Assembly: GCA_016188575.1 (NCBI GenBank)
Contig: JACPHN010000068.1
Location: 92,082 to 156,081, forward strand
Length of the DNA stretch: 64,000 nucleotides
Direction of reading: 5' to 3'
From: Candidatus Schekmanbacteria bacterium
GTDB lineage: Bacteria; CSSED10-310; JACPHN01
Shown here: positions 59,326-64,000 of the stretch, piece after piece
How the letters are laid out: every line of letters starts with the position of its first letter
Position numbering within the stretch: position 1 is the first letter of the stretch
Notes under the pieces: generated by a model
Seen by the model: only the letters and a program-made list of their open reading frames with translations
What the model was told of the DNA's origin: nothing
The model's database searches: none
Program-made: the position numbers and the translations under genes

Positions 59326-60058
59326 ATGCCTGTCGAACGTACGCCTTTGCAAGTTGATTGTGCTGTCCGCGTCGAGCCGGGGAATGCAGGGGAGCTGCTC
59401 GTGTACGTGGCGTATCAACCGGAGCGAGTCCGAAAGATCCGGACCATTGCCGATGCGCGGTGGGACCCGCGGAACAAGTGTTGGCGGGTTCCCGATCGGC
59501 CGGAAACGCTGCAGCGTTTGCGGGATCTGTTCCGGGACGACGGGGTTCACGTCGACCGACGACTGCAGGCGGCTTCTTCACCGAGGCAGCCCCGCCGAGC
59601 TGCCCGACGTCCTCGTCATCTCGCTGTCTCGCCACCGCGAGACCGTGAGATCGATCCACGCTGCCGACCTCTCCGCCGGCCATGGCCGTGTCGTGCTGCC
59701 CGACGCGCTGGCCCGGAAGTACCCGGGAGCGCCGACCGATTGGCGGTGGCAGGTTGCATTTCCGCAGCAACGGCGCTGGCGAAACGAGGAAACCGGTGAG
59801 GAAGGTCGTCACCATGTCCACGAGACGGTCATTGAACGCGCCGTAAAGCAAGCCGTGACCGCGGCGGGTCTGAGCAAGCGGGCCATCTGCCACACCTTGC
59901 GCCACAGCTTCGCAATCCATTTGTTGATGGCTGGATACGACATCCGCACGGTGCAGGAACTGCTCGGCCACAAGGACGTCTCCACGACCATGATCTACAC
60001 GCACGTGCTGAACCGCGGTGGCATGGCCGTTCGCAGCCCGGCCGATGCGCTTGGGTAG
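59326..60058 (+). pseudogene. intI: Integron-type tyrosine integrase, internally deleted and frameshifted
   Basis: ATG 59326 (AAGGAAACTATC upstream) opens a frame encoding an N-terminal module ([37 protein letters not shown]). Near 59,570 the reading must shift to another frame, which continues [31 protein letters not shown], then [39 protein letters not shown] and [12 protein letters not shown], hallmarks of IntI. HxLRH and the final Tyr are present, but the SAM-like domain and first catalytic Arg region (roughly 190 residues) are gone. Inactive as read. The orientation is the same as the cassette that follows. Confidence 0.8.
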
Positions 60059-60072
60059 CCGGCGAGGAGGTT

Positions 60073-60079
60073 GTTATGC
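60073..60079 (+). other. Probable left recombination point (R' box, GTTATGC) of the cassette
   Basis: GTTATGC lies 15 bp after the integrase relic. It is the exact reverse complement of GCATAAC, the R'' box of the attC at 62,844. In integrons the first bases of a cassette (TTRRRY) complete the R' box of its circular attC, so this pairing marks the expected left junction. The motif is short and could arise by chance. Confidence 0.5.
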
Positions 60080-60228
60080 AGATCTTGACAAACGACTTAT
60101 CCAGCAACGCGACTCAGGGCAGAACCGCGCCATCGCGGGATTCTTGCCGTGAGCTGTCCGCGATGGAGCCCGAACTAGCAAACCAGGGACGCTGGGCGAA
60201 CAGGATATCACGGACTGGATAATTACAA

Positions 60229-60257
60229 GTTCTTCCGACGCTGCGCGTCGGAAGAAC
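60229..60257 (+). promoter_or_regulatory. Perfect 12-bp hairpin in the cassette leader
   Basis: GTTCTTCCGACG (60229-60240), loop CTGCG, then CGTCGGAAGAAC (60246-60257), ending 40 bp upstream of the first cassette gene. No T-run follows, so a simple terminator is unlikely. It could be an operator for a controller or a 5' RNA structure. Confidence 0.45.
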
Positions 60258-60297
60258 GGGGCGCCTGATTGTGAGACACGAACCATGAGGAGACCGA

Positions 60298-61815
60298 GTG
60301 GCCCCGCGTAACGCGTTCAAGACGAACTCCAGCTTCTTCCGAATGCTGGCGGTTGGTGCCGTCGGTGCTCAGGCAGTTCAACAGCATTTGAACTCCCTCG
60401 GTCACGACGTCATCGAACTTGAGCGCGGCTCACTGGCAACTCGGATTTGGCGAGATGTGAAGAGAAAGCGCGTCCGAATACCTGATCTATGTTGCACCCG
60501 ATGTGGTGTCCGGATCGAGTCGCGCGCGAAGACGAACGCGGACTTGAGTATGTCGCACTCGCCCAGCGACGCGGAGCGAGCCTGGCACTATGGAATGCTG
60601 GATTCAGACTGGATCGCTTTCCCAACCCTATCGGCGGAAGAGGGCACCTGGGGTGCAGGCGGGCTTCACTCACGCCGCTCGCTTTGGAGGGAGCGCACTC
60701 TGATAACGTGGCGCGTTGATGGTCGGATCAATCTCTTCACCGTGGCGTCATTCCGGGGTGTCGCCCCGAAGCAGCTCAAGCCAAAGGGAGTCAGCGAGGG
60801 GTCAGAGATCCAGGTGAAGTGGAAGGGCCGTTTCGCGCCCGAAGGCGGCCGGGTAGTTGATGCGAGCAGCGGACGTCTCGACTACCTGCTCGCCAGCGAA
60901 CCAAACAGAGCCCGCCACTTCCGACTTGCTGCAGACGAGCGGGCGTTCCTTGCCGCCGGAGAGCACTTTCAGACCAACCAAGTTCTGGCTGGTCAGATTG
61001 CGCCCCTAACAACTGATGAATCTCGCTGTGTCGGAGGATGCGACACCGCGAAGCTCAAGCAGATGCTCGGTTCACGGGAGCGCACTGTTCGCTTCACCGG
61101 CTGCAAGCTCGCCAGGTTCGCGAAGGATGCGACTCTTGCGGACCAGGTCCGGGAATTGGCAGAGGACACCGAGGAAGATGCCTACGTTCGCATGGAGGCG
61201 CGATCATGCCTCTGCGAGGTTGCTGCGGACTCTGCCGAAGATCAGTTCCGCGCGACGTTGCTTGAAGACACCGACGACCAGATGCGACTCGAGGCCGCCG
61301 TCGCTCTTGCCGAGACCCACACTTCGACTTCCTTCTCTCTCCTACGCGAAGTCCTCGAAGATGCCGCACAACCGCTCTTCTTGAGGAGCGCGTGTGCATG
61401 GGGCATCGGGTGCCACGGGACGCAGGAGGCCGCGGAGGTCTTGGTCCAAGCGTTCGCGGACGTCTCGCCCAAGATTCGGGAGGAGGCGCTTGTCGCCCTT
61501 CAGGATCTTGGTTCCGTCGGCTTCGATCCTCTGTTGAAGGGGCTGGAAGCGCCGTCAACCGAGGTCGCCGCTGGCGCCGCAGAAGCCTTGCGCCGGATCG
61601 AGGGCGCGCCCGCGAAGGAGATCGCGTCGCTGGCAGAGCGCGCATCCTCGACTTGGCCGACGTGGGCGCTGGCGCACCTACCGAAGGAGGCGGTTGCTCC
61701 CCATATCGCGGCATTGCAGGGCAAGAGACCGGAGGTCCACTACGCGATGTCCGTGCTTTGGACGTTCCTGGAAAGCTGGATCGCCGAGGACTGGACACCG
61801 AGGTCGACACCATGA
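60298..61815 (+). CDS. HEAT-repeat protein with N-terminal nuclease-like region (candidate restriction component)
   Basis: GTG 60298 with AGGAG upstream. 505 residues. The N-terminal 110 residues run FFRMLAVGAVGAQAVQQHL, a helix, then IPDLCCTRCGVRIESRAKTN, in which P62-D63 and E74-x3-K78 resemble PD-(D/E)XK spacing apart from the longer E-K gap; cysteines 65, 66 and 69 could bind metal. Residues 115-285 are unassigned. Residues 290-480 are HEAT/PBS-lyase-type repeats (AYVRMEARSCLCEVAADSAE; DDQMRLEAAVALAETH; PKIREEALVALQDLG). Overlap with a methyltransferase suggests a restriction partner. The nuclease assignment is tentative; the repeats are clear. Confidence 0.65.
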   Translation: MAPRNAFKTNSSFFRMLAVGAVGAQAVQQHLNSLGHDVIELERGSLATRIWRDVKRKRVRIPDLCCTRCGVRIESRAKTNADLSMSHSPSDAERAWHYGMLDSDWIAFPTLSAEEGTWGAGGLHSRRSLWRERTLITWRVDGRINLFTVASFRGVAPKQLKPKGVSEGSEIQVKWKGRFAPEGGRVVDASSGRLDYLLASEPNRARHFRLAADERAFLAAGEHFQTNQVLAGQIAPLTTDESRCVGGCDTAKLKQMLGSRERTVRFTGCKLARFAKDATLADQVRELAEDTEEDAYVRMEARSCLCEVAADSAEDQFRATLLEDTDDQMRLEAAVALAETHTSTSFSLLREVLEDAAQPLFLRSACAWGIGCHGTQEAAEVLVQAFADVSPKIREEALVALQDLGSVGFDPLLKGLEAPSTEVAAGAAEALRRIEGAPAKEIASLAERASSTWPTWALAHLPKEAVAPHIAALQGKRPEVHYAMSVLWTFLESWIAEDWTPRSTP

Positions 61816-62849
61816 CGAAAGGCATGATGAAAACGCCGTTCCGGGAACTGCCCCCGCCCATCTACCTCACACGCAACGGTGCGTGCTACCTCGGCGATTC
61901 CTTGGAACTTCTCCGGCACTTTCCGGAAGATTGCGTCGACCTCGTCGTCACATCTCCTCCCTTCGCTCTGTTGCGACAGAAGGCATACGGCAACAAGGAT
62001 CAAGCCGAATACGTCGACTGGCTCTGCGGGTTCGGAGCTGAGGTGCGTCGCGTGCTGCGCGAAACAGGTAGCTTCGTCCTCGACTTGGGTGGCGCGTACC
62101 AACGAGGAGTGCCCGTTCGCTCCCTCTACCAGTACCGTGTTCTCCTGAGAATGTGCGACGAGGTCGGCTTTTATCTCGCCGAGGAGTTCTTTTGGTACAA
62201 CCCGGCGAAGTTGCCCTCCCCGATCGAATGGGTCAACAAGCGGAAGTTGCGAGCCAAGGACTCGGTGAACTCCGTGTGGTGGTTGTCAAAGTCCGAATGG
62301 CCAAAGGCCGACGTGCGTCAGGTTCTGGCGCCGTACTCGGAGCGGATGAGAACCCTGCTCAAGAACCCTGACGCATTCTACAAACCGAAGGACCGTCCGT
62401 CAGGCCATGACATCAGCAGGGGCTTCGGCTCTGACAACGGCGGCGCCATTCCGTCAAACCTGCTGCAGATCCCCAATACAGAGAGCAATTCGTCCTATCT
62501 GCGGCAAGCCAAGCTGGTCGGACTCGAAGGACATCCCGCACGGTTTCCGGCAGGCTTGCCGGAGTTCTTCATCAAGTTCCTTACGACTGGCAGCGATCTG
62601 GTCGTCGACATCTTCTCGGGATCGAACACAACAGGAAGAGTCGCGGAGCACCTTGGACGGCGGTGGATCGCGATGGAGCTGGACGCGAGTTACGTTGCTG
62701 GTTCCGCGCTCCGGTTCATGGACCACCTTCCGGAGAGCGAGGTCGCGGAATGCTTCGCTCAACTGTCAGCGAGTTCAAGAAGTGCTCCAGTTGACCTCTC
62801 CGGGCCGCCCACCTTGTTCGATAAAGCAGAGGCGGAACGTGGCGCATAA
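61812..62849 (+). CDS. Site-specific DNA methyltransferase (beta-class, m4C or m6A)
   Basis: ATG 61812 overlaps the HEAT gene stop (ATGA); in-frame ATGs a few codons later are alternatives. 345 residues. Catalytic motif IV is TSPPF (residues 47-51), followed much later by the AdoMet motif DIFSGSNTTGRVAEHLGRRW (about 266-285), giving the beta-class order. SPPF favours N4-cytosine, but N6-adenine is not excluded. AxxPARFPAGLPEFFIKFLT is also typical. No target-recognition domain is apparent beyond the central region. The stop codon lies inside the attC R'' box. Confidence 0.9.
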   Translation: MTKGMMKTPFRELPPPIYLTRNGACYLGDSLELLRHFPEDCVDLVVTSPPFALLRQKAYGNKDQAEYVDWLCGFGAEVRRVLRETGSFVLDLGGAYQRGVPVRSLYQYRVLLRMCDEVGFYLAEEFFWYNPAKLPSPIEWVNKRKLRAKDSVNSVWWLSKSEWPKADVRQVLAPYSERMRTLLKNPDAFYKPKDRPSGHDISRGFGSDNGGAIPSNLLQIPNTESNSSYLRQAKLVGLEGHPARFPAGLPEFFIKFLTTGSDLVVDIFSGSNTTGRVAEHLGRRWIAMELDASYVAGSALRFMDHLPESEVAECFAQLSASSRSAPVDLSGPPTLFDKAEAERGA

Positions 62850-62927
62850 CAACCGGTTGCAGCGAACAGCGCCCTGCGGTAGTAAACTACCTCCGGGTGC
62901 TGCCGCTGACCCGGCGCCCCGTTAGGG
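62844..62927 (+). other. attC recombination site (59-base-element type)
   Basis: R'' box GCATAAC (62844-62850) and R' box GTTAGGG (62921-62927) bound an 84-bp segment that folds: outer CCGG/CCGG pairing, then CAGCG-AA-CAGCGCCC opposite GGGTGCTG-CC-GCTG, and an inner GGTAGT-AA-ACTACC hairpin (62878-62891). The opening ATAACAACCGGTTGCAGCG is very like many cassette attC sites. Both boxes deviate from RYYYAAC/GTTRRRY at one position. Confidence 0.75.
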
Positions 62928-62943: not shown

Positions 62944-63072
62944 GTGAGCGTGTACGACAACCGTGAAGTCCCAGCCTACAGGGACGACTTCGAGCCCTAC
63001 TACAACCGAAACATCGCCGCATGGTGGTCCTCGGCCCACGATGAGATGCTCTTGCGCCTGATGGACCGGTAA
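62944..63072 (+). CDS. Short ORF after attC, probable truncated cassette gene
   Basis: GTG 62944 begins 17 bp after the attC, where cassette genes normally start. 42 codons: VSVYDNREVPAYRDDFEPYY, NRNIAAWWSSAHDEMLL, RLMDR, then TAA at 63070. The aromatic, acidic sequence looks like the N-terminus of a longer protein cut off at the junction with the IS fragment. No family recognised. Confidence 0.45.
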   Translation: MSVYDNREVPAYRDDFEPYYNRNIAAWWSSAHDEMLLRLMDR

Positions 63073-63089
63073 CAATAGACTAGGCGGGT

Positions 63090-63383
63090 CGTAACACCAG
63101 CGTAACGCTGACATCGGATCGCCGCGTGTTGTCGGTTCGACCAACGTGTCAAGGTCTGTCAGCAGACTATCGTCTTTGTCCGTGAGCTTCTTACGTCCAC
63201 CGCCCGGAGCGCGGATCGGGCCTCGCCTGCCATTCGCAACGGCCCACTCCGCCTCCATCTCTGGGCCAAAGCCGGCTGCCCTCAGCTCGGCCAGCCCAGC
63301 ATGAATTGTCGTACGAGACATGCCAATTGCGGCGGCAACCATGCTGACCCCACCGCGGCCCAGGCTACGCGCCTCCAGCTTAC
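63090..63383 (-). pseudogene. ISAzo13-type transposase fragment
   Basis: Reading leftward from about 63,383: LEARSLGRGGVSMVAAAIGM, SRTTIHAGLAELRAAG, then IRAPGGGRKKLTDKDDSLL and LVEPTTRGDPMSALRW. This matches the N-terminal quarter of ISAzo13-type transposases (HTH followed by the RxPGGGRK region). Similarity stops after LRW, near 63,090, so both ends are lost. It separates the truncated cassette gene from the nuclease gene. Confidence 0.75.
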
Positions 63384-63415
63384 AGCCGCTCGCCGATCTT
63401 GGCGTTCCCTATGCC

Positions 63416-64000
63416 ATGCTGCTTTACGAGCGGTTCCTCGGGAGGCCCTTCGCCGGGCACAGGGATTCGGTGAGCGAGCTGGTCGGCGATGTCCTGGAGA
63501 CAGCCATTGAAGGAGCCCTGCACCGCCACGGCATCGGCTACCGCAAGACCAAGCGGGCAGAGCGCGTTGCGGGCTTCGACCAGGCCCCGGATTTCATCAT
63601 CCCTGATGAGTTCAATCCGCAGATCGTGATTGAAGCCAAGGTCACCGAAGACGATGGTACGGCACGTGACAAGGTGACCCGCGTCCAGCATCTGAGATCG
63701 CTGGCCATGGCGGGCCAGCCCGCGGATCAGCCAAAATTCGAGGTCGTGGCCTGCATCGCCGGGCGCGGCTTCCGGGTCCGGCGCGAGGACATGAAGAAAC
63801 TCCTGCTGGCTACCAGAGGCAAGGTGTTCACGCTCGCTAGTCTCTCCCAACTGGTAGATTGCACAGGACTTACCGAATTCAGGACACGAATCCAGATCGC
63901 CGCCGAAACCGTCGCGACTCCGGCGCAGACTCCGTCCCGGCTGCGTCTCGTGAAGCCGCGCCCCAAGGACCGTTACGTCACCTGTCTGCCGGTCGTCCCG
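63416..64000 (+). CDS. PD-(D/E)XK nuclease (partial, runs off the window)
   Basis: Frame open from before 63,383 (where the IS fragment ends) to the last base; ATG 63416 (MLLYERFLGRPFAG) is the first plausible start, but the true N-terminus may have been lost. Visible: SELVGDVLETAIEGALHRHG, then a canonical nuclease core P58-D59 (APDFII) and E73-A-K75 (IVIEAKVTEDDGTARDK), followed by TRVQHLRSLA. These are the metal-binding residues of restriction-type endonucleases. A restriction or DNA-repair role is likely; the specific family is unassigned. Confidence 0.7.
   Translation, partial: MLLYERFLGRPFAGHRDSVSELVGDVLETAIEGALHRHGIGYRKTKRAERVAGFDQAPDFIIPDEFNPQIVIEAKVTEDDGTARDKVTRVQHLRSLAMAGQPADQPKFEVVACIAGRGFRVRREDMKKLLLATRGKVFTLASLSQLVDCTGLTEFRTRIQIAAETVATPAQTPSRLRLVKPRPKDRYVTCLPVVP

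What the first reader, a model, noticed from the sequence alone, without database searches (positions are those of the whole stretch)
60074..62927. Integron cassette carrying a HEAT-repeat protein plus DNA methyltransferase: candidate cassette-borne defence system
Seen: two genes overlapping by ATGA, the second a clear beta-class DNA methyltransferase with its stop codon inside an attC R'' box; the attC folds well; a GTTATGC exactly complementary to that R'' box sits just after the integrase relic. Known: cassettes end in attC and typically carry one gene, and integrons can carry defence genes. Inference: the HEAT protein, with PD (62-63) and E74/K78 near its N-terminus, is the restriction or effector partner. 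A HEAT-scaffolded nuclease paired with an orphan-looking methyltransferase in a mobile cassette is not a layout I recognise.
Basis: partly seen in the sequence, partly recalled or inferred. Interest (0 to 1): 0.85.

Follow-up and report, generated by a model that had tools for sequence, protein, structure and literature searches.

The report
Restriction gene pair inside integron cassette
A bacterium carries a two-gene unit, a PvuII-type DNA methyltransferase and a probable new kind of partner DNA-cutting enzyme, as a mobile integron cassette whose two ends match the two halves of a tiny gene-less cassette that occurs about 18 times in the same genome, which makes it a rare natural case for asking how genes become mobile cassettes.

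Summary
The gene pair is real and is a conserved module. The methyltransferase is a close M.PvuII relative (61% identity; expected mark m4C in CAGCTG). The HEAT protein (505 aa) has no known family at its N-terminus. All 7 HEAT homologues found (the window plus six Chloroflexota genomes) are followed at once by a PvuII-type methyltransferase, and PD62-63, E74, R76 and K78 are invariant. In the sampled part of the window's genome CAGCTG is by far the most avoided hexamer (7 seen, 159 expected; z -23), as a PvuII-specific restriction history would leave. Restriction-modification is therefore likely, but the nuclease fold is not shown (AlphaFold pLDDT below 50).

The cassette is real, with a corrected left edge: 60230-62921. 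GTTATGC at 60073 is part of the attI region, not the junction. One Chloroflexota homologue is also bracketed by attC sites, next to an SfiI-type system.

Unexpected: the cassette's first 37 bp and last 80 bp match the two ends of a ~152-bp gene-less cassette present in about 18 near-complete copies in this genome. The gene pair stands where its middle 38 bp would be, suggesting that the pair acquired, or exchanged, its attC through a mini-cassette.

The parts
59326..60058 (+). Integron integrase relic (intI), broken by a 593-bp internal deletion relative to the intact copy in contig C88; same direction as the cassette
   Evidence: TIGR02249 3e-63 on the C-terminal 152 aa; blastn to C88 in two blocks, 95.4% and 96.4%, with C88 9721-10313 missing
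   Evidence: 96% identical to the stretch after the intact intI in C88, homology ending at CAAGTT; GTTATGC also follows the C140 intI
60229..60265 (+). Left piece (positions 1-37) of the gene-less mini-cassette, hairpin GTTCTTCCGACGCTGCGCGTCGGAAGAAC plus GGGGCGCC; cassette start
   Evidence: 37/37 identity to the mini-cassette consensus
60267..60297 (+). 31-bp leader of the gene pair, shared with the cassette copy in G066
   Evidence: blastn homology window vs L047 runs 60267-62850
60298..61815 (+). HEAT protein, 505 aa: putative restriction nuclease (conserved core residues 38-110, beta-rich middle, HEAT repeats about 250-450)
   Evidence: Pfam HEAT_2 1e-18; 7-member alignment with invariant E40 E42 K55 K57 R58 R60 P62 D63 C66 C69 R72 E74 R76 K78
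60409..60627 (+). Codons 38-110 of the HEAT gene: candidate catalytic core (PD62-63 at 60481-60486, E74 at 60517-60519, K78 at 60529-60531)
   Evidence: 33 of 73 residues invariant against 13 of 140 in residues 111-250; fold not shown
61812..62849 (+). PvuII-type DNA methyltransferase, 345 aa, predicted m4C at CAGCTG
   Evidence: PDB 1boo (M.PvuII) E 1.3e-134; 61% identity over 304 aa
62844..62927 (+). attC of the cassette (R'' GCATAAC 62844-62850, R' GTTAGGG 62921-62927); 62844-62923 = positions 76-155 of the mini-cassette
   Evidence: 96% identity to the mini-cassette, whose copies stand at cassette ends across the genome
60230..62921 (+). The whole integrated cassette, 2692 bp
   Evidence: Junction G/TT at attI and G/TT at attC

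Best explanation
It is a two-gene type II-like restriction-modification module carried as an integron cassette. The second gene makes a PvuII-type methyltransferase that should put N4-methylcytosine in CAGCTG and protect the host. The first gene makes a 505-aa protein whose conserved N-terminal core (PD...E.R.K plus CxxC) is inferred to cut unmethylated CAGCTG DNA, with HEAT repeats as a DNA- or protein-binding scaffold. The cassette entered attI of a duplicated integron whose integrase, reading in the same direction, has since lost 593 bp. The cassette ends (first 37 bp, last 80 bp) are the two ends of a gene-less ~152-bp mini-cassette of this genome, so the pair probably received its present attC by fusion with a mini-cassette. 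Shown: the pair and its conservation, the cassette borders, the mini-cassette match, CAGCTG avoidance. Inferred: nuclease activity, specificity, direction of the fusion.
For: MTase is 61% identical to M.PvuII. All 7 HEAT homologues are followed within a few bases by a PvuII-type MTase. Catalytic-type residues are invariant although the distant members are only about 30% identical. CAGCTG is the most avoided of 3735 hexamers in 464 kb of this genome, 7 seen against 159 expected, z -23 against -9 for the next. M.PvuII relatives elsewhere stand beside nuclease genes: PvuII itself, HNH endonucleases, other restriction endonucleases. In G066 the pair is bracketed by two different attC sites and follows an SfiI-type R-M cassette. 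Cassette borders. Mini-cassette.
Against: Two AlphaFold runs, limited to two close sequences, left the N-terminus below pLDDT 50. No Pfam, NCBIfam, PHROG or PDB match for residues 1-110. The motif is E-S-R-A-K, not a plain E-x-K. CAGCTG is also avoided in some control genomes (G067, G069, G054), and genome-wide avoidance must be older than this one acquisition, so it may come from another PvuII-type system. For the cassette, R' (GTTCTTC) and the inner R'' (GCATAAC) are complementary at only 5 of 7 positions, so its excision may be poor.
Confidence: 0.62

Rival explanations
1. The HEAT protein is not the restriction enzyme but an accessory or a different effector (for example a nickase, a modification-dependent nuclease or an abortive-infection protein) working with a PvuII-type methyltransferase that marks self.
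For: The nuclease fold is unproven; HEAT repeats occur in several non-restriction defence proteins (weak PADLOC hits to HEAT-ARM and DRT proteins); the protein is far larger than R.PvuII and unrelated to it.
Against: Strict one-to-one pairing with one methyltransferase specificity and no third gene common to the loci; invariant PD/E/K residues; CAGCTG avoidance points to cutting at that site.
Confidence: 0.22
2. Reverse order for the mini-cassette: coding cassettes with this attC came first, and the gene-less copies are deletion remnants that then spread; the shared ends record common descent, not capture of the genes.
For: Deletion forms clearly arise (62-bp form C56:87266-87315 plus 11 bp, ~106-bp form at C142:2592).
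Against: The same payload in G066 stands between unrelated cassette ends, so the genes changed attC at some time; the full-length gene-less copies are 94-98% alike and keep a perfect 19-bp second arm that no gene-carrying copy seen here explains.
Confidence: 0.35
3. The cassette is a dead relic: old cassette, decayed integrase, no expression and no function.
For: intI is broken here; the next cassette is truncated after 44 codons.
Against: Both reading frames are intact and under constraint (78% and 83% protein identity to L002 with catalytic residues kept); intact integrases exist in trans (C140, C88).
Confidence: 0.1

Closest known systems
PvuII restriction-modification system (Proteus vulgaris pPvu1)
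   Same: Methyltransferase 61% identical over 304 aa, same expected site CAGCTG
   Different: R.PvuII is 157 aa, divergently transcribed with a C regulator; here a 505-aa HEAT protein unrelated to R.PvuII, in one operon before the methyltransferase and without a regulator gene
Other PvuII-type methyltransferases with HNH or other endonuclease neighbours (Thiothrix, Roseivivax plasmids)
   Same: Same methyltransferase clade paired with a different nuclease
   Different: No HEAT partner there
Integron cassettes carrying restriction-modification or defence genes
   Same: attC-ended mobile cassette with defence-type genes; R-M cassettes were described before (own recall of XbaI in Xanthomonas and of 2025 integron defence surveys, not tested here)
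   Different: The partner protein, and cassette ends that equal the two halves of a gene-less cassette
Gene-less integron cassettes of Vibrio and Treponema (PMC11014356, PMC6557892)
   Same: Cassettes without ORF inside arrays
   Different: Those tested by insertion into a reporter were matched with 450-650 bp control fragments and act as promoters (PMC11014356); here about 152 bp, essentially only an attC that folds as a three-way junction, in about 18 near-identical copies
PADLOC HEAT_CxxC_PDDEXK (PDLC01150)
   Same: Name describes the same ingredients
   Different: Only a 32-residue match at E 0.05-0.2

Membership tests
Integron gene cassette | Inserted between attI (or an attC) and ending in its own attC with G/TT junctions | tested here: met
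   G/TT at 60229/60230 after C88-like attI and at 62921/62922
Integron gene cassette | Own R' at the 5' end complementary to own R'' | tested here: inconclusive
   Inner R'' GCATAAC against GTTCTTC: 5 of 7; the mini-cassette's outer R'' GAAGAAC is 7 of 7 but lies at the far end here
Integron gene cassette | Bottom-strand attC folding | tested here: inconclusive
   Window attC z -2.0; full mini-cassette z -11.6
Integron gene cassette | Recombination by an integron integrase | not testable with these tools
   Needs an assay; intact integrases exist in C88 and C140
PvuII-type N4-cytosine methyltransferase | Close sequence relationship to M.PvuII with SPPF motif and SAM motif | tested here: met
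   E 1.3e-134 to 1boo; SPPF conserved in all
PvuII-type N4-cytosine methyltransferase | Methylates CAGCTG at N4-cytosine | not testable with these tools
   Indirect: CAGCTG is the most avoided hexamer in the sampled genome
Type II restriction-modification system | Methyltransferase and cognate nuclease as neighbours, conserved together | tested here: met
   7 of 7 loci for the pairing as such
Type II restriction-modification system | The partner is a site-specific endonuclease | not testable with these tools
   Needs a cleavage assay
PD-(D/E)XK nuclease superfamily | alpha-beta-beta-beta-alpha-beta core | tested here: inconclusive
   AlphaFold models below pLDDT 50 in this region
PD-(D/E)XK nuclease superfamily | PD ... 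(D/E)-x-K motif | tested here: inconclusive
   PD62-63, E74, R76, K78 invariant in 7; spacing is E-x-R-x-K
R.PvuII family | Sequence relationship to R.PvuII | tested here: not met
   BLASTP E 0.78; hhalign probability 0.1%
PADLOC HEAT_CxxC_PDDEXK | Full-length match to the model | tested here: not met
   Residues 45-76 only, E 0.21; best of 7 members 0.051

The most novel reading that the evidence does not exclude
The gene-less ~152-bp cassette is a self-spreading, attC-only element (an integron counterpart of a miniature transposable element) that makes new gene cassettes by fusing with genes: the restriction pair lies between its two halves, and its 3' part, with a fixed end and a variable start, occurs at some 14 other places in this genome, some of them just after a gene (a methyltransferase-like ORF in C150, for one).
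Probability: 0.35. Interest if true: 0.85.

Novelty: new variant of a known kind. Interest (0 to 1): 0.66.

Why it matters
If the HEAT protein cuts CAGCTG, it is a restriction enzyme family without a described relative in the libraries searched, paired with one of the best-studied methyltransferases, so its activity can be tested quickly with PvuII-methylated controls. The cassette ends matter more generally. How genes become integron cassettes is called largely unknown in the literature (PMC5371416). A genome with about 18 near-identical attC-only cassettes, a dozen or more 3' fragments of them with variable starts, and one gene pair lying between the two halves gives concrete joints for testing cassette formation or attC exchange.

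Tried and rejected
GTTATGC at 60073 as the cassette edge: rejected, it is part of attI. R.PvuII kinship of the HEAT protein: rejected. Membership in PADLOC HEAT_CxxC_PDDEXK: not supported. Structure prediction with the two sequences that the tool admits (window and L002): failed twice, so no fold search was run. The seven-member alignment was not sent to the structure tool, because its stated rule does not list loci from whole-genome searches. HEAT homologues in plasmids, phages and viral contigs: none convincing. Mini-cassette in 97 other genomes, plasmids, phages, viral contigs: no copy, only one 29-bp hit. Other left-piece fragments (C142, C265, C115, C162, C67) were checked for a closed cassette with a gene between two halves: none is complete, so the window is the only such case. 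First attC scanners missed known sites and were replaced by comparison within the genome.

Full report
What is there. The window holds two intact genes: a 505-aa HEAT protein (60298-61815, GTG start aligned with the ATG of its homologues) and a 345-aa DNA methyltransferase (61812-62849) overlapping by ATGA. The methyltransferase is a close M.PvuII relative: E 1.3e-134 to PDB 1boo and 61% identity over 304 aa to the pPvu1 enzyme. From family knowledge this predicts N4-methylcytosine in CAGCTG. The HEAT repeats are clear from about residue 250 on. The first 110 residues match nothing in Pfam, NCBIfam, PHROGs or PDB sequences. Residues 160-235 weakly resemble the RNA polymerase beta sandwich-barrel hybrid region (E 0.03).

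The pair is a conserved module. A pattern scan of 84,980 species genomes gave one relative (L002, a Chloroflexi MAG: 78% and 83% identity, same order, same ATGA overlap). Profile searches of Chloroflexota genomes added five more. In all seven loci the HEAT gene is followed within a few bases, usually with a 4-bp overlap, by a PvuII-type methyltransferase. The distant members share only about 30% identity with the window protein, yet residues 38-110 hold 33 invariant positions, among them E40, E42, K55, K57, R58, R60, P62, D63, C66, C69, R72, E74, R76, K78 and SMSHS (84-88). The order (helix, strand, strand ending in PD, strand with E-x-R-x-K, helix, strand) would suit a PD-(D/E)XK core, but this reading is inference: two AlphaFold runs with the two admissible sequences stayed below pLDDT 50 there.

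Test of the specificity. In 464 kb of the window's genome CAGCTG occurs 7 times against 159 expected from its sub-words. Among 3735 hexamers it is the most avoided by far (z -23; next -9), and 5 of the 7 sites lie within 5 kb on one contig. The other six pair-carrying genomes also avoid it (ratios 0.00-0.22). Four of seven control genomes do not (0.41-1.11) and three do (0.00-0.13). Avoidance of a single site is what long exposure to a PvuII-specific nuclease leaves; methylation alone would not be expected to do so. It cannot be credited to this one cassette, which looks acquired (third-position GC 0.70-0.71 against mostly 0.80-0.84 in neighbouring genes).

The cassette. The broken integrase (59326-60058) and the 170 bp after it are 95-96% identical to an intact integron integrase and its flank on contig C88, apart from a 593-bp deletion. 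Identity ends at ...CAAGTT, the attI cleavage point, so the cassette begins at 60230. GTTATGC at 60073 lies inside this attI region and also follows the C140 integrase; its match to the R'' box is a coincidence as far as the junction is concerned. The integrase reads in the same direction as the cassette, as reported for Treponema integrons (PMC11014356). The right end is an attC at 62844-62927 whose R'' box holds the methyltransferase stop codon.

A second, independent cassette. In G066 (Chloroflexota, 4.68-Mb contig) the pair stands between two attC sites of other sequence: ACCTAAC...GTTGGTC overlapping the methyltransferase stop, and GCTCAAC...GTTGGTC 40 bp before the HEAT start. The gene before it is an SfiI-type restriction enzyme with its own methyltransferase. 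G066 has integron integrases, the nearest 82 kb away. Homology between the window and G066 runs exactly from 60267 to 62850, that is, from a 31-bp leader to the stop codon. The payload is shared; both cassette ends differ. In circular form the two ends are one contiguous piece, so attC was exchanged as a unit. In the remaining loci no convincing attC was found.

The mini-cassette. The first 37 bp of the window cassette (100%) and its last 80 bp (96%) are positions 1-37 and 76-155 of a 155-bp sequence present in about 18 near-complete copies (86-98% identity, mostly 94-98%) in this genome, most of them directly after another cassette's attC or after attI, with the next cassette following. It carries no gene. 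Its 5' R' box GTTCTTC is the exact complement of GAAGAAC at position 23. Its bottom strand folds as a three-way junction: a base stem, an attC-like arm with unpaired bases and a perfect 19-bp arm (-65 kcal/mol, z -11.6). It was not found in 97 other genomes, plasmids, phages or viral contigs. Fragments tell more. About 14 places besides the window have only its 3' part, mostly with the same 3' end and starts at positions 8, 20, 32, 32, 37, 50, 79, 80, 80, 81, 84, 86, 94 and 94; some follow closely on an ORF, for example a DNA methylase-like ORF in C150 whose stop is 9 bp before the joint, though for many no clear gene ends at the joint. At C117 the joint runs through the middle of another attC. 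Others have only the 5' part, one followed by a gene (C115), but none of these is closed by a right half. The window is the only unit seen with an intact payload between both halves.

How it probably works and arose. Steps shown: two-gene cassette at attI; conserved pair; attC exchange between G066-like and window-like cassettes; many gene-less copies in the same arrays. Steps inferred: the HEAT protein cuts unmethylated CAGCTG; deletions or illegitimate joints between a gene cassette and neighbouring mini-cassettes replaced both of its ends. The opposite order (gene-less copies as remnants) is not excluded.

Comparison with the known. The methyltransferase belongs to the PvuII type. The whole is best filed as a restriction-modification system with a new partner protein; membership of that partner in PD-(D/E)XK remains open, R.PvuII kinship is excluded by sequence, and the PADLOC HEAT_CxxC_PDDEXK model does not fit. 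Gene-less cassettes are known in Vibrio and Treponema as promoter cassettes (PMC11014356, PMC6557892). Cassette formation is described as largely unknown (PMC5371416). R-M genes in integrons are known from earlier work (own recall), so carriage as such is not new.

Noticed in passing
window 60229-60265 and 62844-62923; G000 contigs C43, C56, C99, C102, C117, C197, C262, C7, C66, C81, C159 (L079-L086, L117-L136): Gene-less ~152-bp integron cassette in about 18 near-complete copies, plus many 5' and 3' fragments; three-way-junction fold of the bottom strand.
   Followed up: partly
G000 as a whole (464 kb sampled: window, L170-L189): CAGCTG is almost absent (7 against 159 expected), the only strongly avoided hexamer; 5 of the 7 sites lie in C235:8001-13004 near a recombinase-like ORF.
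   Followed up: partly
window 63371-64000: Open frame running off the contig end with a PD...IEAK stretch; weak Pfam PDDEXK_11 (0.01). Perhaps part of another restriction gene.
   Followed up: no
window 62945-63342: Next cassette's gene is cut after 44 codons; on the minus strand follows a transposase-like fragment (resemblance to ISAzo13 recalled, no Pfam match).
   Followed up: no
L047 8267-10026 (G066): SfiI-type restriction enzyme (PF11487 2.5e-58) with its methyltransferase directly before the HEAT pair, an attC between them: two R-M units in a row.
   Followed up: partly
C88 (L056), C140 (L055), C197 (L083): Integrons with the integrase in the same direction as the cassettes and attI after its stop codon; first cassette of C140 is a secreted HEAT-repeat protein.
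   Followed up: no
C150:75277 (-, L126), C86:438 (-, L124): Methyltransferase-like ORFs ending 9 and 41 bp before 3' pieces of the mini-cassette (function judged by eye, not searched).
   Followed up: no
C177:67361-69038 (L058): Second integrase relic on the window's contig, followed by an attC with the same R'' GCATAAC and a degenerate mini-cassette hairpin.
   Followed up: no
HEAT protein residues 160-235: Weak likeness to the RNA polymerase beta sandwich-barrel hybrid region (E 0.03).
   Followed up: no
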